DNA of 64,000 bases from a bacterium (GTDB lineage Bacteria > Patescibacteriota > Saccharimonadia > Saccharimonadales > UBA4665), in NCBI GenBank assembly GCA_021811625.1, contig JAJZNU010000005.1, positions 62,001 through 126,000 of the forward strand. The letters run 5' to 3'. The translations under genes and the position numbers were made by a program. Every line of letters begins with the position of its first letter. The first letter of the stretch is position 1. The notes under the pieces are model-generated. The model was not told the DNA's origin, did not search any database, and saw nothing but the letters and a program-made list of their open reading frames with translations. Positions 21,417 through 41,619 of this stretch are shown here, piece after piece.

Positions 21417-21487
21417 TAGGTTCGAATCCCATTTGCCCTAATACAAGAGTACATATTTGAGCTTAAGTCCAGTTACCATTAAGGCTG

Positions 21488-22045
21488 GTGGATTTTTTTG
21501 CTACTATTAACTTTATGGGCACACTATCAATTATCCTCGGAATACTAGGTCTTATTGGAACTATTGTAAGTCTTGTGTTTGCAATAGTTGTGTATGTAAG
21601 CCCTATGTTTCGATTTAAACTCTATTTACGCAATAAAAATGCTTGGGTAAATATCCATCTACGTGCTGGTGGTGATGATGGATACTTACAGCATTCACGT
21701 CATCCAGAATTCACAATAACGGAATCAGAAGATAGCCGAAAATGGGATAGAGACGAGCCCTGGATGAAAAAGACTATTAGACCAGACAAAAATTCTGGCT
21801 CTAGAAAAGTATACTTAAATGTAAGCGGTGTTGTTGTTTGGAGTGGTGACTTCATGTTTCTTGATGGTTATAGAATATATGTTCCTGTTCCGAAAGTAGA
21901 TTATGCAGAAACAGAAAATGAAGAGGACAATACCTATTACTATGACGAGGTGCAGATTCTAGTTGCAAATGTCATTGGAAAATTTCATATATACAATAAC
22001 CTGAATGAATTTTGCTCAAAAACAGGTATTTGCATGAGTCACTAA
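21488..22045 (+). CDS. Hypothetical membrane-anchored protein
   Basis: N-terminal TM (MGTLSIILGILGLIGTIVSLVFAIVVYV), likely start internal; 4 nt from next gene. Confidence 0.65.
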   Translation: MDFFATINFMGTLSIILGILGLIGTIVSLVFAIVVYVSPMFRFKLYLRNKNAWVNIHLRAGGDDGYLQHSRHPEFTITESEDSRKWDRDEPWMKKTIRPDKNSGSRKVYLNVSGVVVWSGDFMFLDGYRIYVPVPKVDYAETENEEDNTYYYDEVQILVANVIGKFHIYNNLNEFCSKTGICMSH

Positions 22046-22049
22046 GCAT

Positions 22050-23273
22050 ATGAACGATCAACTTACCCACTACGAAGATTTATTCGGCAAAGCCATACCA
22101 ATTGACTATGACACACAGGCTGAAAGGTGGATTGGTTTTTTAGATAAAGCTATTAAAACAAAAAATCCAGAGATAAACGGTTACGGCATATCCATGGGCA
22201 ATCCTACGGATGAATTTGGATATTGGCATTGGCAATTACGATTTAACAAGCAGGTCGGAATCACTGCTGTTCCAGCTGATATTCCTAGGTTGCTAATACT
22301 TCCAACTGCAACCACACCTAAATCAATATATGTTGTTTTAGGTGATACCAAGCCAGTTTCGAACGAAGATAAGGAAATGTGGTTAAAGGTTATCAAGAAG
22401 GCTAACCAACAGCTAAAAAGACAGCAACCTAAAACATTTCAGTGGGAAGCAGCAATTGGTCAGCAAAATGAGCCTGGCGGAAATCAATATATGTCATTAA
22501 GGTCCAGTACTAAAGTTGGACATATAACAGTCCGCCCTGGTCGTAATTCATTTAGTTTTGCTGGTTCAACACCTATGCCAACCTTTAATAGTGGTTCATT
22601 CAGTACTACTTACCCCATTATTGTAAGCGGAACTGTGGCGGGTCATGACTGGCTAGAAGCTTCTAAGCAAGCCAGTAGAGACTTAAATAAATTTGCAGAG
22701 TTATTATCCATAGCCTGGAAGTCAACTTGGAAAGTGATCCATTCTCCACAGCCAGTTGGGGCATCGCCTCTTAAAATACCCGCTCGTAGTCTCGGTGTGC
22801 CAATGCGAGCCCTTAGGTTGCCCAGAACAAGAAAGTCAATCCCCAAGTGGCTTATAAAGGCATTCCAAAAAGTTGATAAAGACGTAGCATTATCGAATGC
22901 GTTAAAAACTCACCACGAAGGTTTATTAATGCAAAGTGACCATCCGTCTTTCGCCAATCTAGCATTCGTGTCTGCTATAGAGACTATAGGCAGGAAGTTA
23001 GCAGGGTCTAAGGTTTGCGACAAGGAAAGATTTAGAATTGGGCTACGGACAGTGTACAGTGCTAAAAAGGTAAAGCTGCTAGAAACATCATATTCTCCAA
23101 GAAGTAGCACTACGCATGAAGCGGTTCTTCACGGCAATGAAAGCATGGTTGGTCATGTAGGTTTGCCTTCAATTTTTAATCCTGACCCAGCGGATATTTT
23201 TGGAATAAGTGAAGTACGTAAGATTAAAACAGTTAGTTGTAAGGTGCTGGAAAAACAACTGAGATCATTGTAA
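22050..23273 (+). CDS. Hypothetical protein with C-terminal HEPN-like region
   Basis: C-terminus ...SFANLAFVSAIETIGRKLAG...LETSYSPRSSTTHEAVLHG with an R-x4-H (RSSTTH) motif; translationally close to the membrane partner. Confidence 0.55.
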   Translation: MNDQLTHYEDLFGKAIPIDYDTQAERWIGFLDKAIKTKNPEINGYGISMGNPTDEFGYWHWQLRFNKQVGITAVPADIPRLLILPTATTPKSIYVVLGDTKPVSNEDKEMWLKVIKKANQQLKRQQPKTFQWEAAIGQQNEPGGNQYMSLRSSTKVGHITVRPGRNSFSFAGSTPMPTFNSGSFSTTYPIIVSGTVAGHDWLEASKQASRDLNKFAELLSIAWKSTWKVIHSPQPVGASPLKIPARSLGVPMRALRLPRTRKSIPKWLIKAFQKVDKDVALSNALKTHHEGLLMQSDHPSFANLAFVSAIETIGRKLAGSKVCDKERFRIGLRTVYSAKKVKLLETSYSPRSSTTHEAVLHGNESMVGHVGLPSIFNPDPADIFGISEVRKIKTVSCKVLEKQLRSL

Positions 23274-23564: not shown

Positions 23565-24875
23565 TTAAACCGTAAACCTTCTAAAAATTTGTCTATCTTT
23601 AACAAATAATGGTACGTTTAAACCTCGCATAAAGTCATCTTGCTCACTAAGACCGCCCTGTTTTAACACGTAGCTAGCATAATTTCTAAAGTAGTCACGT
23701 TCAGTTAGCTTTAGGCCATGGTCTTTGATCAATTGGCTAGTTATTCGTTTATGCTCCTCTATGCGCTTGTAGAGCCTTTCTGTTACTTCTAAGTCATCGA
23801 ATTGCCCCTCATCAACTAGTTGAAGTATCTGCTCGGTGATCATTTTAGCTGTAATAGATCGCTCTGGGCAGTCAGGGTCTTTAGTAGATTTCGTGCAGTG
23901 ATAATAAACATGTCTATTTTTGCTGCCGTCATTACGCCGCCTGAAATGCTCCTCTACTGTTAGTCTTGATCCGCATGCGCCACAGTAAAGTAAATGTTTA
24001 AATGGAAACTGCTTTGATCCCCAGGCTGGTTTTTCTGGAACTAAGTATTCCATTCTTTGCCGGACTATATTAAAAAGCTCTTTAGTTATGATGGGCTGGT
24101 GTTTACCCTGATAGAGTGGCCCGCCGACCGGATACTCAAAGTACCCATAGTAAAAAGGATTGGTCAGTATTCTGTAGATCTGACTGAGTGATAGTTGCGC
24201 CCCGGCCTTAGTAGTAAAACCACTAGTATCTAGCCAGTCTTTAATAGTTCGACCGCTCTGATGCAATAGGCCTGATCGCTCAAACATCTCTTTAACTATT
24301 GGTGCACGATCAGCATCTAATACAATGTCTTTTACGCCACTGAATGAGCGGTTAATATAGCCTATTGGTGCAGAGCCAGGTCGCCATCCCATCTCACATT
24401 TGGCACGTATACCACGTTTTACGTTAATACCTCTATTATCATTCTCTAATTTGGCCTGAGAACATAAGATCATAAGCAGGAACTTTTCGTTTGGTGTATT
24501 ACTGAAGCTTTGTCCGAAAGTTCGGATGCGTTGGAGCTTATTTAAGTCCATTAGATCGACAAGTGAGCCTAAATCTCCAGCGTTGCGGGACAAACGATCG
24601 GGTGCCCAAGTGAGTACCCCCTCAAATTTTCCATTTCGTAAATCATGCAGTAGCTCATTGAAGATTGGCCGATGACCCGACTCTTTCGCTGAATAGCTCT
24701 CTTGCTTAACCTCCACGACATTTAAGCCCTCACGGTCAGCCATAGCTTGCATTTCTTTTATTTGGGAATCAATGGACATTGCTTGGCGTTCGTCTGATTC
24801 GCTGCTTTTGCGAGCATACAAACAGTATTTTATTTGAGTCAGTACGTCTTCCTTCACAAGCACAAGGTATCGCAA
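23565..24875 (-). CDS. Large serine recombinase / site-specific integrase
   Basis: YCLYARKSSESDERQAMSIDSQIKEMQ, YSAKESGHRPIFNELL, GVLTWAPDRLSRNAGDLGSLVDLMD, recombinase domain and zinc ribbon (LLYCGACGSRLTVEEH...YYHCTKS). Confidence 0.93.
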   Translation of the reverse strand: MRYLVLVKEDVLTQIKYCLYARKSSESDERQAMSIDSQIKEMQAMADREGLNVVEVKQESYSAKESGHRPIFNELLHDLRNGKFEGVLTWAPDRLSRNAGDLGSLVDLMDLNKLQRIRTFGQSFSNTPNEKFLLMILCSQAKLENDNRGINVKRGIRAKCEMGWRPGSAPIGYINRSFSGVKDIVLDADRAPIVKEMFERSGLLHQSGRTIKDWLDTSGFTTKAGAQLSLSQIYRILTNPFYYGYFEYPVGGPLYQGKHQPIITKELFNIVRQRMEYLVPEKPAWGSKQFPFKHLLYCGACGSRLTVEEHFRRRNDGSKNRHVYYHCTKSTKDPDCPERSITAKMITEQILQLVDEGQFDDLEVTERLYKRIEEHKRITSQLIKDHGLKLTERDYFRNYASYVLKQGGLSEQDDFMRGLNVPLFVKDRQIFRRFTV

Positions 24876-24961: not shown

Positions 24962-27900
24962 ATGAGTTTAATTGATAACAAAGCCAAAACACTTCAAGAT
25001 GCATTAAAAAATGCGCTACCTAGCTCAGAGCGTATTGACATACTTACAGCTTACTTTTATTTTTCAGGTTTCTCAGCTCTGGCGGATGAACTGAAAGACA
25101 AAAAAATCCGAATTCTTGTCGGTAAATCAATAGACCCAAACGCAGTGGATGATTTAAGCTCTGCAATGAAGATTGATCCCGATATTGATTTGGCAACTTT
25201 CCAAAACCGAAACTACCTAAATTTATCAAGATCTCAAAAAAAAGCTGAATACGTTGAAAGCTTCGTTCAGTTATTTAATAAGTCATCACTTTCAGAGAAC
25301 TTTGACAGTACAGAGAATCAGCGCATGCATAAGATTTTCGAAGAAAAGTTGAAAGACGGCTCTTTAGAGATACGAATGACAAATGAGCACAATCATGCCA
25401 AGGCATACATTCTTACTAATAAGCCGGAATTCTCGCAAGGGGGTGACTTTATAGGCAATGTGTTTATGGGGTCCAATAACTTTACCTACAACGGCTTAAT
25501 TGGTCAGGGCGAGCTTGCCATAACATTCCGAGACAATGAAAAGTATGAAGAGTTAGAGAATCATTTTAATAGCCTCTGGAATGACTCAAATACCATTGAT
25601 ATTCAAACCCAAGAAAGTAACGACGACTTTTTACAAGTGATACAGAAAAAGCTATGGATACACTCAACTCCTGATCCATACAAAGTATACATTCGGATAT
25701 TGCACGAACTTTATGCAAAAGTTGAGGACGAAGATATAAAATCCCCTGACTCCATCACTAGAGGGATGTTTAAGAACCTCAAGTATCAATTAGATGCTAT
25801 ACGTGACGGAATCGACTGCATTAATAAGAATAATGGCGTAATAGTCGCGGATGTTGTGGGACTCGGGAAGTCCATAATTGCTTCGGCTATCGCATACAAC
25901 TTAGGCATGCCCACAGTTATTGTTGCGCCTCCACACTTGAAAACGCAATGGGAAGAGTATGTGAGCCGCTTTAGAATACCAGGAGCAGTCGTAGAGAGTA
26001 GCGGCAAGATTAAACACCTACACGAACGTTATTCAAAATACGGACAGCCTATCCTATATATTCTTGATGAGGCTCATCGTTATCGAAACGAACTGACTGA
26101 TGACTATCAGCTACTGCACCAATTAACTCGTTCGCATGTAGACAATAAGGTTCTGCTACTCACAGCAACTCCATATAACAACCGACCACAAGATTTATTT
26201 GCAATGGTTAAGCTATTCCAAACACCGAGCCGATCAACAATAAATTCGGTAGACAACCTTGGAATCAGATTCCATGATCTCATAAGTGAATACCGAAAAC
26301 TTGAAAAGGTTGGTAAAAAGAACATGACTGCTGAGGTAGAGGAGAAACTTAAAAAGTTAAGTCAGGAACTTCGCCTTCTTATTGAGCCTGTTGTTATAAG
26401 GCGGTCACGAATTGATCTAAAAGAAATAAAAGAATATGCAGATGATTTAAAAACTCAAGGCATAGAATTCCCAGAAATTAATGGGCCTAATTTGATTCAG
26501 TACGACCTTGGCAATATGCGTGAGCTTTATATAACTACTTTAATGAAAATCACAGATACAGAAAAAGGCTTTGATGGAGCTCGTTATCAGTCTGCTCAGT
26601 ACATAGAGGATGTTAGTAAATTCCGTATCGATTATGGTGCGTTCTTTGATGACACAGACCTAAGAGTAGCTCAGTCTAACTTGGCACAATTCATGAAACG
26701 CTTATTGGTTATGCGTTTTGAAAGTTCTAAATATGCATTTCGCTCGACTCTCAGCAAAATGATCAAATCCCACGATTCCATTATCAATTGGTGGGACGAG
26801 GGATATGTACCAATTCAAAAGAAAGGAGATCTTGTTGACCCGGATGAACTAGAAGATTTTGATGACATTGATGAGATCATGGGCAAGATTAATGACGGGG
26901 AAGAGGTGGATATCGAGAAAGCTAAAAGAAATGCTCTTTTAATCCCAAAGGCATTATTTGAAGAAGATTTCATTATTAAAGTTAAGAAAGACAGAGATTT
27001 ATTACTCAGCATAGAACAAGAATGGTTCGCTGATAATGAAACTGGCGATGATCCGAAACAACTGCGAGTTGAAGAAGAGATTCGAAAACTTCAAGCAGAA
27101 AATCCTCAACGAAAAATTGTGATATTTTCTGGTTACGCAGATACGGCAGAGTGGGTATACAAAAATCTCAAAGAGCATGGATTTAATAAAACTTTCCTAT
27201 ATACGGGCGGTTCGACTGTAGCCGATAAATCAATTGTTTCAAGAAACTTTGATGCATCTTGGCCAGAACAAGATGACGATTACGACATTATTGTTGCTAC
27301 CGACGCACTTAGTGAAGGCTTTAACTTGCATCGTGCCGGAGTGGTTATTAACTACGATATTCCATACAATCCAACACGAGTAGTGCAGCGTATTGGGCGT
27401 ATCAACCGTATTAACCAGAAGATGTTCGATGATATTTATATATTCAACTTCTTCCCAACCGACGTTGGCGAAGACGTAGCGAATATCAAGGGTATTAGTA
27501 CGCTAAAAATGTTACTAATTAATAATATTGTAGGTAGTGACACGAGAACACTTACGCCAGATGAAGACTTGCAAAGCTACTTTAAGAAAAGTTATGACGC
27601 AGCAAAAAGCGATGAAAATGAACGATCGTGGGATAACGAATATCGAAATGCGTACAACTCTATTAAACACAACCATGAGCTATTAAAAGAAGTATTGGAA
27701 ATCCCAGAACGAACACGCATTGTACGCCAAAATCAGCACGAAGCAGTCTCAATATCGTTCGCAAAACGAGGTAACGGTACTCTATTTGCTCTTGCTAATG
27801 ACAACGATTCTGAAGCACAAATATTAGCACCTGAGCTTGTGTTGGTATTCTTCAAAGCTGAACTAGGTGAAAAATCTAAGGAAGGTGATCCTGATCTAGA

Positions 27901-28252
27901 TCTGAAATTTGAGATTCTTCGTAAAAGGATTACAGCACCACATCCTGCACCAAAAGTTGAAGGCCGACGTGCAGACGCTATCAAGATCATTGAGTATCTT
28001 AAAGAATCTTATACGCAAGAGCGTGACTATCTTTATGATCTTTTTGATGCCATTAAAGACTATGACGATCTTTCAGACGGAGAATTAAAATACATTGCCC
28101 AGCTTCGTCTATCAGATGATTATCTCAAAAATGCAGTAGAAGAATTAAAACAAAGGTTTCCTGTCCACTACATTAATGTAATTAAAGAAAAAGCTGAAGC
28201 AATAGATAGAGTATCTGAAATCATTATGTTCACTGAGGCTCTGCGTAAATGA
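24962..28252 (+). CDS. PLD-like nuclease fused to SNF2/DEAD-type helicase (putative defence)
   Basis: HAKAYILTNKPEFSQGGDFIGNVFMGSNNFTYNGL (PLD half-site), ADVVGLGKSIIASAIA, ILDEAHRYRNE, LLTATPYNNRPQDL, QRIGRINRINQ. Confidence 0.9.
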   Translation: MSLIDNKAKTLQDALKNALPSSERIDILTAYFYFSGFSALADELKDKKIRILVGKSIDPNAVDDLSSAMKIDPDIDLATFQNRNYLNLSRSQKKAEYVESFVQLFNKSSLSENFDSTENQRMHKIFEEKLKDGSLEIRMTNEHNHAKAYILTNKPEFSQGGDFIGNVFMGSNNFTYNGLIGQGELAITFRDNEKYEELENHFNSLWNDSNTIDIQTQESNDDFLQVIQKKLWIHSTPDPYKVYIRILHELYAKVEDEDIKSPDSITRGMFKNLKYQLDAIRDGIDCINKNNGVIVADVVGLGKSIIASAIAYNLGMPTVIVAPPHLKTQWEEYVSRFRIPGAVVESSGKIKHLHERYSKYGQPILYILDEAHRYRNELTDDYQLLHQLTRSHVDNKVLLLTATPYNNRPQDLFAMVKLFQTPSRSTINSVDNLGIRFHDLISEYRKLEKVGKKNMTAEVEEKLKKLSQELRLLIEPVVIRRSRIDLKEIKEYADDLKTQGIEFPEINGPNLIQYDLGNMRELYITTLMKITDTEKGFDGARYQSAQYIEDVSKFRIDYGAFFDDTDLRVAQSNLAQFMKRLLVMRFESSKYAFRSTLSKMIKSHDSIINWWDEGYVPIQKKGDLVDPDELEDFDDIDEIMGKINDGEEVDIEKAKRNALLIPKALFEEDFIIKVKKDRDLLLSIEQEWFADNETGDDPKQLRVEEEIRKLQAENPQRKIVIFSGYADTAEWVYKNLKEHGFNKTFLYTGGSTVADKSIVSRNFDASWPEQDDDYDIIVATDALSEGFNLHRAGVVINYDIPYNPTRVVQRIGRINRINQKMFDDIYIFNFFPTDVGEDVANIKGISTLKMLLINNIVGSDTRTLTPDEDLQSYFKKSYDAAKSDENERSWDNEYRNAYNSIKHNHELLKEVLEIPERTRIVRQNQHEAVSISFAKRGNGTLFALANDNDSEAQILAPELVLVFFKAELGEKSKEGDPDLDLKFEILRKRITAPHPAPKVEGRRADAIKIIEYLKESYTQERDYLYDLFDAIKDYDDLSDGELKYIAQLRLSDDYLKNAVEELKQRFPVHYINVIKEKAEAIDRVSEIIMFTEALRK

Positions 28253-31200
28253 TTCTAGATCAGCCTTATAACAAAGATACCTTTGAGGGGTTCCTGAAAG
28301 TCTTTATTCCAGATTTTGTTAAAGATAGTCGACCAGTTAGAACCCACGAAAATTCTATACTTACAGAGGTAACGCAACTAGGCACATCTAAAGAAGCTAA
28401 TGTAACCATTCTGGAAGCAGTTTGCGAAGAAACAGACAGCAAGAAACGTATCGCGATTACTCAAGCAGCATTTAAAGTTCTAAGAGACCATAGCATTCGG
28501 AATGCTTTAATAGCTTTCCATGACGGAGCCGATCAGTGGCGATTATCACTACTAACGTCTACACTAGAATTAAAAGATGGCAAGATAATAAAAAAGGATA
28601 GTAACCCTCGTCGTTATTCATACCTTTTGGGCGTAGGAGCAAAAACTAGGACTCCCTACAAATATCTAATTGAAAAAGGATCAGTCAGTGATATCAAATC
28701 ACTGCAGAGTCTATTCTCTGTAGAAGTAGTCAACAAACAATTTTATGAGTCTATCGCGACTTTATTTACCAAGCTCGTAGGTGGAGAACGTGGCTCTACC
28801 ATGTACCCAGGCTTGCTAAGAATCAACGGCGAAGTCAACCAAAGTGTTGAACATCAAGAGTTCGCCGTACGGCTTATTGGACGGATTATTTTTAGTTGGT
28901 TTTTAAAAGAAAAGAAAAGTTCTGCTGGAGTGCCTATTATACCGAACGAACTATTGTCTCTTGATGCCGTAGCTCGTAACTCAGACTACTACCATAATGT
29001 ACTTGAACCACTTTTCTTTGATCTACTTAACAAGCGTGTTGAGCATCGGCATGAGTCCTTAAGAGAAGCTCCATTCTCAACTGTACCATACTTAAATGGC
29101 GGATTATTTAGCTCACAACCTGGCGACTTTTATAATCAAAAAGCATTAACTAATCCTGAAACACTAGAGCTTACAATCATACCCGATGATTGGTTTACGG
29201 AACTCTTTACATTACTAGAACAATATAACTTCACCGTAGATGAAAACACTAGCTATGATGTCGATTTGTCTATCGATCCAGAAATGCTCGGGCGAATATT
29301 TGAGAATCTACTCGCTGAAATCAACCCGGAAACAGGTGAGTCTGCACGTAAAAGTACAGGTAGTTTCTACACCCCTCGCGAAATCGTAGATTATATGGTT
29401 GACAGCTCATTACTAGAGTTTCTAAAGAATAAAACAGGAGCAGATGAGCAAAAGCTAAGAGCACTAATTAGCTGGGGTCAAGATGATGATGAACTTCATC
29501 CTCTGACAGATGCTGAAAAGGAAAAGGTAGTAGGTGCACTATCGAATCTTACTATTCTCGACCCAGCTTGTGGGTCTGGAGCTTTCCCAATCGGAATTCT
29601 TCAAAAGGTCGTCTATGTTCTACAGCAAGTAGATGAAAATGCTGAACTGTGGCTCCAAAATCAACTCAAAACTGTTAGTTCACCAGAGATTAGACGTGAT
29701 ATTGAAGAAAGGCATAGGAACGAGAACTATGACTATCTGCGTAAGCTCGGTGTCATTCGTGAATCCATCTTTGGTGTAGATATCCAGACCATCGCAACTG
29801 AAATATCCAAGCTCCGCTGCTTTCTGACTCTCGTAATCGAAGAAGATGTCGATGACAATGTGCGTAATCGTGGTATCCGCCCTCTTCCAAACCTCGACTT
29901 TAAGTTCGTAACAGCCAACTCACTTATAGGTCTACCAGCGAGTGATGAGGCCAGAGGACTGAACCTTTTTGAAGATGTTTCGCATATCGATCGCCTCAAA
30001 GACATTCGCAATCGGTACTTTGGGGCCGACGCCGATGAACGTGCCCGGCTGCAAGTAGAGTTCAAAGACTTACAACTAACTATGTTCAAGAGTCGTCTTG
30101 CTTCTATGGGCGCTACTTCAGATCTATATAACATACTATCCGATTGGAATCCATTTAGTCACGATAAGACAGAATGGTTTGATGCTGAATGGATGTTTGG
30201 TATTGAAGGTTTCGATATTGTGATAGCCAACCCTCCATACGTAGGCGAAAAAGGCCACAAAACTATGTTTGATCTGTTGAAGCAAACAGCCCTTGGAAAA
30301 AAATTCTATAAGGGTAAGATGGATTTGTTTTACTTCTTTTTTCACCTAGGTCTTAATAAACTTACCGACAAAGGTATATTATCTTTTATTTCCACCAACT
30401 ACTACCCTACAGCAGATGGTGCTCTAAAGTTGCGCAAAGACTTTTATGAACGCACGAACGTTATTGAGTTAATCAACTTTAATGAGTACAAGATTTTCGA
30501 ATCTGCACTTGGCCAGCACAATCTTATAACCTTACTACAAAAAACTGTTACACCAAACGAAAAACTAAAGACCAAGCAGACTTTCGTAAAGAAACGAGGC
30601 GGCCCGAACGCAAGCGAGCTAAGTAGTTTTTTACAGCGCGCCGGTGAAGATGCATTGTTTACCGATGTTGATAGGAATCGTCTATTTGACGGCGATAGCT
30701 TCTATATTCGCTTTACTAATGGTGGATCAGCGATAGACTCTATTTTAGATAAAGTCGCCAATAACGGCAAAAAGCTCAGCGATCTATGTCTCGTTAATCA
30801 GGGTATTGTATCTGGTGCCGATAAATTTAGTAATGCACATCATCGCAAGTTTCCAACAATCAATGCAACTAAAAGCGATGGAATATTCGTGGTAAATAAA
30901 GGTGAATTAGGAAATAATGAATTTCTAAAACCATGGTACAAAAATAGTGATATCAATAGGTATGTTTCGTCAAAAGATACGGATGAAGTAGTGGTGTATG
31001 CTCGCAAACAAGATGCTGATATTTTTCCTGCAAACCTTTTAGCTCACTTGAATAACTTTAGAGAAGTCATCGATGCATCATCGGCGAACTCTCCCTATCT
31101 ACATAGGCCGAGAGGAGACATCTTTGATTGTCCTAAGATTGTCGCCCCTCAACGAAGTAAAGTTAACACATTTGCCTACAACGATATACCTTGGTACGGA

Positions 31201-31551
31201 TCAGCTGATATCTATTTCATTACGAACAAAGAGGGTAAGAACTTAAACTTAAAATCAATCCTTAGCATATTAAATTCAAAGTTGATGTATGTCTGGCTGT
31301 ATAATCGTGGCAAACGTAAAGGCGAAACACTCGAACTATACGGTACACCGCTTTCTCAAATCCCAATCGTGTTGCCGACTGACGAAGACGAAAATATGCT
31401 GACTGAGCTTGTAGACGATATCATTGCTCGCCGCACCAGTAATCCAAATGCTGACATCTCTGCCCAAGAAGCAGAAATCAACAGGATAGTGTACAAACTT
31501 TACGGCCTTACAGAAGATGAAATAAAAATTATCGAGAACACTTCCAAGTAG
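28249..31551 (+). CDS. Eco57I-like N6-adenine DNA methyltransferase / restriction subunit
   Basis: STGSFYTPREIVDYMVDSSL, ILDPACGSGAFPIGILQ, FDIVIANPPYVGEKGH; ATGA start/stop overlap with upstream helicase; C-terminal target-recognition-like region. Confidence 0.9.
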   Translation: MILDQPYNKDTFEGFLKVFIPDFVKDSRPVRTHENSILTEVTQLGTSKEANVTILEAVCEETDSKKRIAITQAAFKVLRDHSIRNALIAFHDGADQWRLSLLTSTLELKDGKIIKKDSNPRRYSYLLGVGAKTRTPYKYLIEKGSVSDIKSLQSLFSVEVVNKQFYESIATLFTKLVGGERGSTMYPGLLRINGEVNQSVEHQEFAVRLIGRIIFSWFLKEKKSSAGVPIIPNELLSLDAVARNSDYYHNVLEPLFFDLLNKRVEHRHESLREAPFSTVPYLNGGLFSSQPGDFYNQKALTNPETLELTIIPDDWFTELFTLLEQYNFTVDENTSYDVDLSIDPEMLGRIFENLLAEINPETGESARKSTGSFYTPREIVDYMVDSSLLEFLKNKTGADEQKLRALISWGQDDDELHPLTDAEKEKVVGALSNLTILDPACGSGAFPIGILQKVVYVLQQVDENAELWLQNQLKTVSSPEIRRDIEERHRNENYDYLRKLGVIRESIFGVDIQTIATEISKLRCFLTLVIEEDVDDNVRNRGIRPLPNLDFKFVTANSLIGLPASDEARGLNLFEDVSHIDRLKDIRNRYFGADADERARLQVEFKDLQLTMFKSRLASMGATSDLYNILSDWNPFSHDKTEWFDAEWMFGIEGFDIVIANPPYVGEKGHKTMFDLLKQTALGKKFYKGKMDLFYFFFHLGLNKLTDKGILSFISTNYYPTADGALKLRKDFYERTNVIELINFNEYKIFESALGQHNLITLLQKTVTPNEKLKTKQTFVKKRGGPNASELSSFLQRAGEDALFTDVDRNRLFDGDSFYIRFTNGGSAIDSILDKVANNGKKLSDLCLVNQGIVSGADKFSNAHHRKFPTINATKSDGIFVVNKGELGNNEFLKPWYKNSDINRYVSSKDTDEVVVYARKQDADIFPANLLAHLNNFREVIDASSANSPYLHRPRGDIFDCPKIVAPQRSKVNTFAYNDIPWYGSADIYFITNKEGKNLNLKSILSILNSKLMYVWLYNRGKRKGETLELYGTPLSQIPIVLPTDEDENMLTELVDDIIARRTSNPNADISAQEAEINRIVYKLYGLTEDEIKIIENTSK

Positions 31552-31608
31552 TGTCCTGTGGGTTCATATGGACGAGAAGCAGTTTGATATATAGGTAAGT
31601 TTCGTCGT

Positions 31609-33069
31609 TCAAGAGATATCAAAATCAAAATATTCGTACTCCGCTTTGGTGTGTATGTAGTTTAGAGTTAAGGTTAGCGCGTCAACCAAATCGTCATGCT
31701 TCTCAACCCCAAAATGCAGCAGCTGATTAATTATCGATTTGGTAGATCCATCTTTAGGAAAGAACACTCGTCCTTGCTCGAATAACATACTCGCTGTTGA
31801 TAGACGTGAACGTTTGTCACCACGAACACCTAAACCCTCAACGTCCAGACCTTGGCTACTTAGTACTTCGACAGCCGCTTGTTGGTACGATATATTCTCG
31901 ATGAGTATCTGGGGGTGCCAATCATTAACAAACAGTCGACTATAGCTTTTTATAAGCTCACATGTCGTAAGGAATGTAATGCGACGATTAGTGAAGTGGG
32001 GATCAATATAATAACGTCGATCTCTTTTTGACTCGCCATAAGCATGCACGACTACGATAGCAGTGTAATCCGCCGAGGTGCTTTCGGAGATAGCCAAATC
32101 CACACCTATATAAGTGTTTATGTACTCATTGGTTTCATCTTTTTCAGGTAAACCATCCTGATCATAGTAGTTTATCCATTTGGGATCGATAACTTGCCCC
32201 TCATCAGGCACTATATTTAGCAAATATTCTCTCTGCCATGCCCTTTCGTTACCTAATTGCTTTTCTTTCTCCAATAGAGACATGCTATCTGGATATTTAC
32301 CAGGCCAAAGACAGTAACCATTCTCGTCTATAAGCGGGAATCTCTTAAATACGCCCGACATAGATTCTTTTTTGATACTCGCATAAAGACGCATAAGCAA
32401 AGAGTCTTCATGGAGTAAGTTACCAATCGTTATAATTTTTGTATCTTCGTCACCTAGTGGCAAAATATCGCCGGTAAACCATTCGTAAGTCTTATTTCGA
32501 CCGTCCTGAGTTTTGACAGAATTCATATCTTCGACATCGTCGGCAATGATTAAATCTGGCCTGTATGCGCCATGCCTGACGCCACGTATTGCTTGTTCAG
32601 TTGAAGCGGCAACAATTCTAGCGTTGAACTTAGGCAGAATTAGAGCCGTAGCGCCCCACTCATCAGCTTCTTCTTCCATGGGCCCGTAATCTTTGCGCAA
32701 GAGTTCGTTATTTTCAAACTCTCGTTTAATGTTTAATAAGTGATTACGGGCTTGGCTCTGGGTCTGACTTAGAATCACGACAAACCTTTTCTTTTGTATG
32801 CCTAGGATTGCCCACATCGGATATGACTGGGTTATAATTGTCGACTTACCAGAGCCGCGAAAGGCCACTATAACGGCGTGCCTAATGGATTCGTCTTCCG
32901 TGATTGAATACAGCTCACGATGAAAAGCAGCCGTTGGATGTTTCACATACTCACTCATGTAAAGATGAAAGAAATAATAATGGCTCCGCTCGGCCAGATG
33001 CATCCTGACCGAGCGTTGATTTTTTAGCAGTTCAAAGTCTAAGTTTTTATCTTCCATAGCGCTAGCCAT
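31609..33069 (-). CDS. Phage terminase large subunit
   Basis: VIVAFRGSGKSTIITQSYPMW (Walker A), DLIIADDVEDMNSV (Walker B), nuclease-like IGVDLAISESTSADYTAIVVV. Confidence 0.9.
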   Translation of the reverse strand: MASAMEDKNLDFELLKNQRSVRMHLAERSHYYFFHLYMSEYVKHPTAAFHRELYSITEDESIRHAVIVAFRGSGKSTIITQSYPMWAILGIQKKRFVVILSQTQSQARNHLLNIKREFENNELLRKDYGPMEEEADEWGATALILPKFNARIVAASTEQAIRGVRHGAYRPDLIIADDVEDMNSVKTQDGRNKTYEWFTGDILPLGDEDTKIITIGNLLHEDSLLMRLYASIKKESMSGVFKRFPLIDENGYCLWPGKYPDSMSLLEKEKQLGNERAWQREYLLNIVPDEGQVIDPKWINYYDQDGLPEKDETNEYINTYIGVDLAISESTSADYTAIVVVHAYGESKRDRRYYIDPHFTNRRITFLTTCELIKSYSRLFVNDWHPQILIENISYQQAAVEVLSSQGLDVEGLGVRGDKRSRLSTASMLFEQGRVFFPKDGSTKSIINQLLHFGVEKHDDLVDALTLTLNYIHTKAEYEYFDFDIS

Positions 33070-33469
33070 CTCCCGGTGATTGAAGTAGTCCAGCCAACCT
33101 TAAAGCATTAGCAACTTGCTGTGCTTGGTCGTCAGTTAATATTTGGCTTTCTTGCTTGATCCGAGCGTTTAACTCAATTCTAGTGGTGTAGGCACCATGA
33201 TGGTGCTTAAGCCAGAAAATAATCGCCGTCATATTACGCTCTTTGATGGCCGATATTAATTGCATTTCTGCCATATCGTTAATGAAGCCAGCGCTGAGAT
33301 GGATGGCTTCGTCACAATTTTCAGCAAATAGTGTATCGGATTTACGCCACCGATAGTACGTTGCACGACCTACCCCAGCTTTTTTACAAGCAATCTCAGC
33401 AATCGGATACTTTTTAAGCTGCTCTAGTATCCGTTTCTTGCCACGGTCTTGTTTGGCTACAACGCTCAT
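33062..33469 (-). CDS. Terminase small subunit-like helix-turn-helix protein
   Basis: EIACKKAGVGRATYYRWRKSDTLFAENCDEA; overlaps TerL start. Confidence 0.75.
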   Translation of the reverse strand: MSVVAKQDRGKKRILEQLKKYPIAEIACKKAGVGRATYYRWRKSDTLFAENCDEAIHLSAGFINDMAEMQLISAIKERNMTAIIFWLKHHHGAYTTRIELNARIKQESQILTDDQAQQVANALRLAGLLQSPGDG

Positions 33470-34794
33470 GACAACTTTTCCCGCTTAAGCCCAGTAAGTT
33501 TTTCCCAGCGGTTCATTATCACCTCTGCGTAAATAGGTGACTTTTCCATTAGGTAGCAACGTCGCTTTAGCTTTGTAGCTGCTATAAGCGTAGATCCACT
33601 ACCCCCGAAGGGTTCTACTACCAGATCATTCCGCTTAGTCAGCACTTTTATATAGGGAATCAATATCTCTACAGGTTTAACGCCGAAGATAATGGCTTGA
33701 CCCGAACTTTTTTCATCTGCTGCATTTGCCTCTATAAAATCGGTGGGTTGGTATCTTTTGCCATGTTTATAGCCTTCCCAGTGTGGTTTACCGGCTATAG
33801 CATAGAGAGCAGTTTCGTATTCTTCTTGAAGACCTTCCTGCTCAGGCTCGTTATTGAATTCAACGTTTCCACCCGCGCCAACGACTGCAATGTCATGCTT
33901 AGAGAAGAATTTGTATCGAGCAGCAAAGCCCTGATTGCGGTTCGGTACATGCCAGCAGATCATATTTTGAACCTTCCAATGCTGCTCCATGCACTCCCAT
34001 ACCTCTCTAATGTTGCGCCAGTTTTCGTAGACTATGATAGAGAAGTCCGGCTTAGCAGCCTTGGCGACGTTATCCATCCATAGTTTTGTGAAATCTTCCG
34101 GCAGTTCGTCAGTCTCAAGGTACTTACGGTTACGTTTAGTTCCGAAGCCTTCTGTTGGCTTGCCGTGCCGTATGCCACCTTTTAGGTATGACAATCTGTA
34201 GGGTGGGTCTGTCATTACCATATCTATCTTTTCGTCACCCATTAGCTTGCCCATGTCGGCTTCTACCGTTGAGTCACCGCACATAAGACGACTATCGCCC
34301 AGTTGGTAGATATCGCCCTTCTGAACTTCAATCGTGTTGATTTTGAGCTTAGCTAGCTCCTTATCGAGATCAAATACTTCTGGGTGATCGGTATCTATAT
34401 CGAAGATTGTGTCCAGTTCTTCGCTAGAGAAGCCCACATCGGTCAATATGTTTTCGTCATACTCCGCCAATATACCCCAGTCCCAATCACCAACGTTTTT
34501 ATTTAGCCTAAGATTCAGCTCCTTTTCTCTTTCAATATCGGGAATATGAATATAGACAATAGGCACTTCCGCCATACCCATATCCTTAGCCACCTTCAAT
34601 CTAAAATGGCCACCTATGACAACGTTACGCCGTTCTGGAGAGCCGTTGACGACCAAAGGGTCGACGACCCCGAACCGCTCCAGGCTCTTAGTTAACTGTT
34701 CGATCGCTGTTTTATCCCAGCGCCGGGGATTATACGGAGCAGCGTTCAGCTCCGATATCTTTATGTTTTGTATAGTTAGTTCTTGCTTAGCCAT
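33466..34794 (-). CDS. ParB-like domain fused to DNA methyltransferase (phage type)
   Basis: ParB-like N-terminus (ELNAAPYNPRRWDKTAIEQLTKSLERFGVVDPLVVN...VIGGHFRLKVAKDMG) and methylase motifs VMTDPPYRLSY, VVEPFGGSGSTLIAATKLKRRCYLMEKSPIYAEVIMNRWE. Confidence 0.93.
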   Translation of the reverse strand: MAKQELTIQNIKISELNAAPYNPRRWDKTAIEQLTKSLERFGVVDPLVVNGSPERRNVVIGGHFRLKVAKDMGMAEVPIVYIHIPDIEREKELNLRLNKNVGDWDWGILAEYDENILTDVGFSSEELDTIFDIDTDHPEVFDLDKELAKLKINTIEVQKGDIYQLGDSRLMCGDSTVEADMGKLMGDEKIDMVMTDPPYRLSYLKGGIRHGKPTEGFGTKRNRKYLETDELPEDFTKLWMDNVAKAAKPDFSIIVYENWRNIREVWECMEQHWKVQNMICWHVPNRNQGFAARYKFFSKHDIAVVGAGGNVEFNNEPEQEGLQEEYETALYAIAGKPHWEGYKHGKRYQPTDFIEANAADEKSSGQAIIFGVKPVEILIPYIKVLTKRNDLVVEPFGGSGSTLIAATKLKRRCYLMEKSPIYAEVIMNRWEKLTGLKREKLS

Positions 34795-40470: not shown

Positions 40471-40591
40471 CACTACCGTTGACTTAAGCTTTTTCGCCAA
40501 AACAATAAGCTGTCGAGGTAAAAAATTAAGGTGTTTGAAGTCGCCTAAAATAATTGAAATCGTTCTAGATTTTCTTAAGTCAACGGCAGTG
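40471..40591 (+). mobile_element. 121-bp MITE, copy 1
   Basis: TIRs CACTACCGTTGACTTAAG...CTTAAGTCAACGGCAGTG; no coding capacity; read-through match to copy 2. Confidence 0.85.
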
Positions 40592-40769: not shown

Positions 40770-40985
40770 ATGAGCGTTATTAGTTTCTCCGTAGACGAAA
40801 GAACAAAAAATGAGCTAGAACGGCTATCTAAAGAAGAGAACCGCACTAAAAGTGATATTTTTCGTGATATGTACAAAACCTACACGTTCAACCGGACCCT
40901 TACTAAAATACAAAATATTGGTAAAGAGAAGTTTTTGGCTCTAGGTATTGAGTCAATTGACGACGCGGAAGCATTTTTGGGCTAA
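40770..40985 (+). CDS. Ribbon-helix-helix antitoxin
   Basis: MSVISFSVDERTKNELERLSKEENRTKSDIFRDMYKTY; directly upstream of PIN gene. Confidence 0.85.
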   Translation: MSVISFSVDERTKNELERLSKEENRTKSDIFRDMYKTYTFNRTLTKIQNIGKEKFLALGIESIDDAEAFLG

Positions 40986-40992
40986 CTAAACC

Positions 40993-41427
40993 ATGCAGCC
41001 CTTGAAAGTAGTATTTGATACCAATATATTTGTCATGGCCGCAGGTATGCCTGGAGGTTATATAGACTACTGGCTTGATTTTGCTAAACCACCCCACAAC
41101 AAGTTCCTGCTATATAGTTCACCTATAATATTAGAAGAAGTTCAAGAAAAACTAGAAGAAAGACTAAAGTTTACGCGACCACTTGCCGTTGAATATATCG
41201 AAGCTATTAAAAGCATTGCGACAGTCGTTAACCCTAGGGTCACTCTAGATGAGGTGCCGACTGATCCTGACGACAATCGCATTTTAGAATGCGCGATTGA
41301 GACTAACGCTGATCTCATTATTACGGCAGATAGAGACTTAATAAGTTTAAAATCATTTCAAGGTGTTCAAATTTTTCATCCCAGTAACCTTAAATACATT
41401 TTCAAATACTTAGAGAACGATATTTAA
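40993..41427 (+). CDS. PIN-domain toxin
   Basis: KVVFDTNIFVMAAGMPGG...DPDDNRILECAIETNADLIITADRDLISLKSFQGVQIFHPSNL. Confidence 0.92.
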   Translation: MQPLKVVFDTNIFVMAAGMPGGYIDYWLDFAKPPHNKFLLYSSPIILEEVQEKLEERLKFTRPLAVEYIEAIKSIATVVNPRVTLDEVPTDPDDNRILECAIETNADLIITADRDLISLKSFQGVQIFHPSNLKYIFKYLENDI

Positions 41428-41498: not shown

Positions 41499-41619
41499 CA
41501 CTGCCGTTGACTTAAGAAAATCTAGAACGATTTCAATTATTTTAGGCGACTTCAAACACCTTAATTTTTTACCTCGACAGCTTATTGTTTTGGCGAAAAA
41601 GCTTAAGTCAACGGTAGTG
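41499..41619 (-). mobile_element. 121-bp MITE, copy 2 (inverted relative to copy 1)
   Basis: Reverse complement matches copy 1 over all 121 bp by eye. Confidence 0.85.

What the first reader, a model, noticed from the sequence alone, without database searches (positions are those of the whole stretch)
24962..31551. Two-gene PLD-SNF2 helicase / Eco57I-like methyltransferase system, putative anti-phage defence
A 1096-aa protein with an N-terminal PLD-like nuclease (HxK and GSNNFT) and SNF2-type motor overlaps by ATGA with a 1100-aa N6-adenine methyltransferase carrying DPACGSGAF and NPPY. This resembles a split Type ISP/BREX/DISARM-like restriction unit, but the other BREX or DISARM genes are absent nearby.
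Basis: partly seen in the sequence, partly recalled or inferred. Interest (0 to 1): 0.7.

Follow-up and report, generated by a model that had tools for sequence, protein, structure and literature searches.

The report
Two-gene ATP-driven DNA restriction system
A tiny parasitic bacterium carries, on phage-like mobile DNA, a compact two-gene system in which one protein probably marks the cell's own DNA and recognises a target sequence while its partner, a motor joined to a DNA-cutting domain, destroys unmarked DNA; the same gene pair occurs in many bacterial phyla but seems to have no name or tested function.

Summary
Window 24962-28252 encodes a 1096-aa PLD-SNF2 protein. It overlaps by ATGA an 1100-aa gamma-type N6-adenine methyltransferase with a TaqI-like specificity domain (28249-31551). 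The host is a Saccharibacteria genome.

The pair is a conserved unit. Among 71 evaluable loci from many phyla, found with the helicase alone, 69 have the methyltransferase downstream on the same strand; 34 overlap and 19 lie within 20 bp. Key catalytic residues are invariant (43/43 helicases, 45/45 methyltransferases). These helicases form one clade (support 0.96), apart from sampled PLD-SNF2 proteins of Type III-like and other operons.

The methyltransferase core is conserved, but identity collapses at about residues 700-1050, as in an exchangeable target-recognition domain; several relatives carry spare inverted copies of that domain beside a DNA invertase. The N-terminal nuclease-like region lacks a conserved ExK.

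Best reading: an ATP-dependent restriction-modification system. The methyltransferase supplies recognition and protection; the PLD-SNF2 partner translocates and cuts, like a split Type ISP enzyme with a SauUSI-like PLD nuclease. It is not DISARM, BREX or the DUF499 (Hma/BR) system: partner genes were not found. It sits on phage-like mobile DNA. New variant of a known kind; no activity shown.

The parts
24962..28252 (+). PLD-SNF2 restriction/translocase subunit, 1096 aa
   Evidence: AlphaFold2 model mean pLDDT 83.5; nearest solved chains by Foldseek are RapA and other SNF2 motors
25022..25579 (+). PLD (HKD) nuclease domain, aa 21-206; HxK at 25394-25402, GSNN at 25469-25480
   Evidence: PLDc_2 1.1e-11; H145, K147, S171, N173 invariant in 43/43 homologues
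25778..27421 (+). SNF2/SF2 motor, aa 273-820; Walker A 25850-25873, DEAH 26066-26077
   Evidence: SNF2-rel_dom and Helicase_C; Walker A, DEAH and motif VI residues 43/43
27470..28249 (+). C-terminal region, aa 837-1096, unassigned; inferred coupler or interface with the methyltransferase
   Evidence: alpha/beta then helical in the model; no Pfam domain, and no abrupt identity drop like that of a TRD in close pairs; function inferred
28249..28252 (+). ATGA start/stop overlap of the two genes
   Evidence: 34 of 71 homologous loci also overlap
28249..31551 (+). N6-adenine methyltransferase plus specificity subunit, 1100 aa
   Evidence: Eco57I 5.6e-28, TaqI_C 7.3e-10; model mean pLDDT 81.1; best structural matches CamA, M.BseCI, BrxX, MmeI
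28249..28638 (+). N-terminal domain, aa 1-130, with alpha-beta-beta-beta-alpha-beta order, probably a degenerate PD-(D/E)XK nuclease
   Evidence: model secondary structure; E56 in 40/45 but position 58 is K in only 12/45; inference
29224..30345 (+). Methyltransferase core, aa 326-699; DPACGSG 29560-29580, NPPY 30229-30240
   Evidence: motif residues 45/45 except P439 44/45
30346..31398 (+). Target-recognition domain, approximately aa 700-1050
   Evidence: TaqI_C; identity to the nearest relative falls from 64-94% (aa 101-650) to 12-30% (aa 651-1050); family-wide mean pairwise identity 0.06-0.2 over aa 751-1000
23565..24875 (-). Large serine recombinase, divergent, 86 bp upstream; linked mobility gene, not part of the enzyme
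   Evidence: Resolvase, Recombinase and Zn_ribbon domains; same divergent arrangement in genome G051; homologues in L055 and L113, which also carry the pair
31609..34794 (-). Phage-like neighbours: TerL (31609-33069), HTH/TerS-like (33062-33469), ParB-like methyltransferase (33466-34794); genomic context only
   Evidence: phrog_38 4.6e-91 and phrog_498 4.4e-79; homologues beside the pair in L113, and except TerL in L055

Best explanation
It is a two-subunit, ATP-dependent restriction-modification system. The methyltransferase subunit recognises an asymmetric sequence through its C-terminal TaqI-like domain and methylates adenine to mark resident DNA. On an unmethylated site it recruits or activates the PLD-SNF2 subunit, which uses ATP to move along the DNA; the PLD domain, probably as a dimer forming one active site as in BfiI and SauUSI, then cuts. 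Shown by sequence: both catalytic apparatuses are intact, the two genes are linked across phyla, and the only hypervariable, recognition-type domain is in the methyltransferase. Inferred: physical complex, N6-adenine product, translocation, and cleavage blocked by methylation.
For: Pairing is near-invariant although loci were selected on the helicase alone: 69/71 evaluable, 53 of them overlapping or within 20 bp. Catalytic residues of both proteins are invariant. The paired helicases form one clade with support 0.961. Helicase identity stays fairly even between close pairs, while the methyltransferase has a conserved core and a sharply divergent aa 700-1050 block, the pattern of specificity exchange. 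Several relatives carry extra TRD fragments and a small serine recombinase just downstream, with inverted repeats joining them; Lactococcus plasmid pJM1F has a similar layout with a different helicase annotation. The ExK lysine of the N-terminal nuclease-like domain is not conserved, whereas a solitary Type IIG-like enzyme from a related genome keeps a PD...ELK-type motif. MTase fold: CamA, M.BseCI, BrxX, MmeI. Motor fold: RapA and SNF2.
Against: No biochemical, methylome or phage data. No model of the complex could be made. The C-terminal 260 aa of the helicase are unassigned and could hold DNA-reading function. Neither L061 nor L062 shows a methyltransferase before its contig end; other genes intervene. 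The recognition motif is unknown.
Confidence: 0.66

Rival explanations
1. Two independently acting enzymes: an orphan or Type IIG-like methyltransferase next to a modification-dependent (Type IV, SauUSI-like) PLD-helicase that cuts foreign modified DNA.
For: SauUSI is a PLD-SF2 protein that cuts modified DNA (PMC7913695). The PLD-SNF2 C-terminus (aa 837-1096) is unassigned.
Against: Near-universal adjacency and frequent gene overlap; no Pfam reader domain in the helicase; the variable recognition domain is in the methyltransferase.
Confidence: 0.12
2. BREX-like exclusion: the pair methylates and blocks phage replication by a motor, without PLD cleavage being the effector.
For: The methyltransferase fold aligns end to end with BrxX/PglX, though at modest TM-score (0.44-0.49 normalised to the query); helicases accompany N6 methyltransferases in BREX type 3 (PMC12839542).
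Against: PLD catalytic residues invariant in 43/43, which argues for a working nuclease; PglZ and DUF499 not found.
Confidence: 0.08
3. The biochemistry is as proposed, but the main beneficiary is a mobile element (prophage-like or integrative) that uses it for self-maintenance or to exclude rival phages, rather than the bacterial host.
For: Adjacent serine recombinase, TerL and ParB-like methyltransferase; similar linkage in Moranbacteria-type loci L055 and L113; pair next to a portal-like gene in IMG/VR contigs L112 and L114, above the Pfam cut-off only in L114; GC about 0.39 against about 0.48-0.50 in much of the flanking sequence; decayed copy in G051.
Against: No portal match in this genome with the one query tried (no positive control); most homologues were found on contigs of bacterial assemblies; the reading does not conflict with host defence.
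Confidence: 0.1
4. An inactive relic.
For: A close relative in genome G051 has lost most of both genes through a deletion of about 4.7 kb.
Against: Both ORFs here are full length with intact motifs and the region is 99.9% identical in a second, viral-collection contig.
Confidence: 0.04

Closest known systems
Type ISP restriction-modification enzymes (LlaGI, LlaBIII)
   Same: Nuclease, SF2 translocase, gamma-methyltransferase and C-terminal TRD in that order; presumably asymmetric target and ATP-driven cleavage
   Different: Two polypeptides instead of one; PLD nuclease instead of Mrr-like PD-(D/E)XK; SNF2/RapA-like motor by fold search. Type ISP description from PMC3874165
SauUSI (Type IV, PLD-SF2-SRA)
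   Same: N-terminal PLD nuclease fused to an SF2 ATPase and a following coupler region
   Different: SauUSI carries its own SRA reader and cuts modified DNA (PMC7913695); here no reader was found in the helicase and recognition appears to be supplied by a methyltransferase
CglI / NgoAVII
   Same: PLD nuclease and SF2 ATPase cooperating, with a methyltransferase gene nearby
   Different: There the PLD plus B3 recognition protein and the ATPase are separate and the methyltransferase is 5mC-specific (PMC4267653); here PLD and motor are fused and the methyltransferase is N6-type with the TRD
Type-2 BREX-related (DUF499-centred, Hma-like) systems
   Same: HKD nuclease fused N-terminally to a SNF2 helicase, with an N6 methyltransferase
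   Different: Those are defined by a DUF499 ATPase and nearly always DUF3780 (PMC12839542); no DUF499 was found here and no recurrent third gene in homologues
PLD-SNF2 genes in Type III-like operons (E. coli and Enterococcus plasmids, phage phi1605)
   Same: Homologous PLD-SNF2 protein, about 25-28% identical
   Different: Associated with DUF4391, a site-specific (Type III-like) methyltransferase and a DEAD/DEAH (Res-like) protein; they lie outside the clade described here

Membership tests
DISARM | DrmD helicase at curated score | tested here: not met
   156 bits against cut-off 610
DISARM | DUF1998/MZB-containing genes (drmA/drmB) | tested here: not met
   MZB PF09369 not found in own genome, 8 control genomes positive; genome 74% complete
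BREX | PglX methyltransferase at curated score | tested here: not met
   BREX-1 model 63 bits against cut-off 500
BREX | PglZ phosphatase | tested here: not met
   PF08665 not found, 2 control genomes positive
Type-2 BREX-related / Hma | HKD-SNF2 helicase plus N6 methyltransferase | tested here: met
   definition from PMC12839542
Type-2 BREX-related / Hma | DUF499 ATPase | tested here: not met
   not found in own genome, one control positive; no recurrent third gene in homologues
Type-2 BREX-related / Hma | DUF3780 protein | tested here: inconclusive
   no match, but no control genome rang either
Type ISP | gamma-methyltransferase with C-terminal TRD | tested here: met
Type ISP | Single polypeptide with Mrr-like PD-(D/E)XK nuclease | tested here: not met
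   two ORFs; nuclease is PLD
Type ISP | Translocation-collision cleavage | not testable with these tools
   needs biochemistry
Type IIG | N-terminal PD-(D/E)XK nuclease active site in the methyltransferase | tested here: not met
   position 58 is K in 12/45 only; assignment of this domain as nuclease-like rests on predicted secondary structure
SauUSI Type IV | SRA or other modified-base reader in the helicase protein | tested here: not met
   no such Pfam domain; aa 837-1096 unassigned
CglI/NgoAVII | PLD plus B3 R-protein and separate Z1 helicase | tested here: not met
   PLD fused to the SNF2 motor; no B3 or Z1 domain

The most novel reading that the evidence does not exclude
A distinct, widely distributed class of ATP-dependent restriction-modification in which a PLD-SNF2 restriction subunit depends entirely on a partner methyltransferase for target recognition, with specificity changed by swapping or inverting the methyltransferase's TRD, and which in Patescibacteria travels on phages or prophage-like elements.
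Probability: 0.4. Interest if true: 0.62.

Novelty: new variant of a known kind. Interest (0 to 1): 0.5.

Why it matters
If confirmed, it adds an architecture to ATP-dependent restriction: motor and nuclease on one chain, recognition and protection on the other, with a PLD-type nuclease. It would give a compact testable system for how a motor is licensed by a separate recognition subunit. It occurs in genome-reduced Saccharibacteria, within the Candidate Phyla Radiation, whose genomes rarely encode CRISPR-Cas (PMC6509639), and in some relatives specificity looks switchable by inversion.

Tried and rejected
DISARM and BREX membership: scores far below cut-offs and partner genes not found. DUF499/Hma (BR type 2): DUF499 not found; the DUF3780 search was uninformative because no control rang. 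Phase variation in this window: no inverted repeats around 29500-33000 and no spare TRD, so that feature belongs to relatives only. Intact prophage around the pair: one portal query gave nothing in the genome, without a positive control, so undecided. Empty-site comparison with the same-genus genome G037: only the metK gene aligned at DNA level and no tRNA-Gln was found on the piece fetched, so the insertion ends were not mapped. Promoter and terminator scans did not exceed shuffles. Literature searches found no paper describing this two-gene unit, but only open-licence papers are held and REBASE was not available.
Full report
What is there. The first protein has an N-terminal PLD domain, a SNF2-type motor and an unassigned C-terminal region; the second has an Eco57I-type methyltransferase core and a TaqI-like specificity domain. 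The best PADLOC model for the first is a profile described only as 'HKD+Snf2' (161 bits) and for the second a Type IIG profile (251 bits). The genome is a 639-kb, 13-contig, 74%-complete assembly. It is placed in Saccharibacteria because a genome of the same order (G157) has a contig of 232,248 bp carrying the pair, the same length and content as a record titled Candidatus Saccharibacteria.

The pair is a unit. Using a helicase alignment, 80 loci were recovered from genome assemblies whose titles name Bacillota, Bacteroidota, Patescibacteria, Planctomycetota, Cloacimonadota, Spirochaetes and others. Of 71 loci with at least 400 bases after the helicase, 69 have the methyltransferase downstream on the same strand; 34 overlap, 19 lie 0-20 bp away and 16 are further. 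In the other two, L061 and L062, other genes follow and the contig ends within 1 kb. No other neighbour family recurred in more than 8 loci, and the most frequent were TRD fragments and recombinases. Titles of metagenome bins can be wrong through mis-binning, so the phylum count is approximate.

Both enzymes look active. PLD H145, K147, S171, N173 and the Walker A, DEAH and motif VI residues checked are identical in 43/43 sequences; NPPY is identical in 45/45 and DPACGSG too, except that one sequence has I for P439. In a tree with PLD-SNF2 proteins from Type III-like operons, Thermus, Allomeiothermus, Thermococcus and Pseudarthrobacter, the paired sequences form one clade with support 0.961 and no other member. 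The tree used one method and a small outgroup sample.

Where recognition sits. Against the nearest full-length Saccharibacteria relative (G357), identity of the methyltransferase is 64-94% in 50-residue windows over aa 101-650 but 12-30% over aa 651-1050, rising to 44% at the end; the helicase stays at 36-78% throughout. Across 45 sequences, mean pairwise identity falls to 0.06-0.2 over aa 751-1000. This is the signature of an exchangeable target-recognition domain. Eight homologous loci carry spare TRD-like fragments downstream and seven a small serine recombinase; in L036 and L038 inverted repeats connect the fragment with the end of the methyltransferase. Lactococcus plasmid pJM1F has a similar arrangement around a related methyltransferase. 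The window itself has none of this.

Which domain cuts. The methyltransferase N-terminus has the strand and helix order of a PD-(D/E)XK fold but position 58, where the ExK lysine would be, is K in only 12/45. A solitary Type IIG-like enzyme from genome G141 has a PD...ELK motif. I infer that this nuclease is degenerate here and the PLD domain has taken over; homology of the domain to nucleases was not separately tested.

Structure. The PLD-SNF2 model (pLDDT 83.5) matches RapA and other SNF2 motors, with low whole-chain TM-scores, so only the fold of the motor is supported. The methyltransferase model (pLDDT 81.1) matches CamA (TM 0.74-0.82 normalised to the target), M.BseCI, BrxX and MmeI. No complex was modelled.

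Mechanism. By analogy to Type ISP, where nuclease, motor, methyltransferase and TRD lie on one chain (PMC3874165), and to SauUSI, where a PLD dimer is driven by an SF2 ATPase (PMC7913695), the likely cycle is recognition by the TRD, methylation if the DNA is to be kept, and otherwise motor activation and PLD cleavage. The fused PLD-motor and separate recognition subunit distinguish it from Type ISP, SauUSI and CglI/NgoAVII (PMC4267653). The closest published architecture found is the Type-2 BREX-related system, which adds DUF499 and DUF3780 (PMC12839542); DUF499 was not found here.

Context. The pair lies in a low-GC stretch (about 0.39 against about 0.48-0.50 in much of the flanks) after a tRNA-Gln gene. 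A large serine recombinase is divergent upstream, and TerL, an HTH/TerS-like gene and a ParB-like methyltransferase follow. Loci L055 (Moranbacteria) and L113 (IMG/VR) combine the pair with homologues of the recombinase and of most of these genes. In IMG/VR contigs L112 and L114 the pair is divergent from a portal-like gene, above the Pfam cut-off in L114 only. A genome of another genus (G051) keeps the recombinase gene and a remnant of both genes joined by a large deletion. One IMG/VR contig is 99.9% identical to the window over 15.3 kb. So the pair appears mobile; whether it serves host or element is open.

Verdict. The interpretation as a split Type ISP-like unit is supported; BREX/DISARM membership is rejected. 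I rate it a new variant of a known kind, because its parts and logic are those of ATP-dependent restriction-modification, with the caveat that REBASE and subscription literature were not searchable.

Noticed in passing
window 40471-40591 and 41499-41619: Perfect 121-nt inverted repeats flank a small ORF (40770-40985, RHH-like by eye) and a PIN-domain gene (40993-41427), a toxin-antitoxin-like pair in a possible small mobile cassette.
   Followed up: no
window 31609-33069 against L004: TerL reads as 486 aa in the window but 367 aa in the near-identical IMG/VR contig, so the two differ by a frame-changing or stop difference.
   Followed up: no
L019 4546-9665: In G357 the PLD-SNF2 protein has an extra N-terminal region of about 220 aa (NERD-like by eye) and a Fic-domain gene directly upstream.
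   Followed up: partly
L036, L038, L044, L092, L110, L116: Spare TRD-like fragments, in several cases beside a small serine recombinase and inverted repeats, suggesting phase-variable specificity in relatives.
   Followed up: partly
window 21419-21441: A tRNA-3'-end-like string (GGTTCGAATCCCATTTGCCCT) follows the tRNA-Gln gene and could be an attachment-site remnant.
   Followed up: no
L014, L015, L018: Homologous PLD-SNF2 genes sit in operons with DUF4391 (or a similarly placed small gene), a Type III-like methyltransferase and a Res-like helicase, including on an Erysipelothrix phage that also carries mef(A)/msr(D)-annotated genes.
   Followed up: no
window 21488-23273: Two unknown genes between tRNA-Gln and the recombinase; the first weakly matches PADLOC PDC-S50 (48.5 bits).
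   Followed up: no
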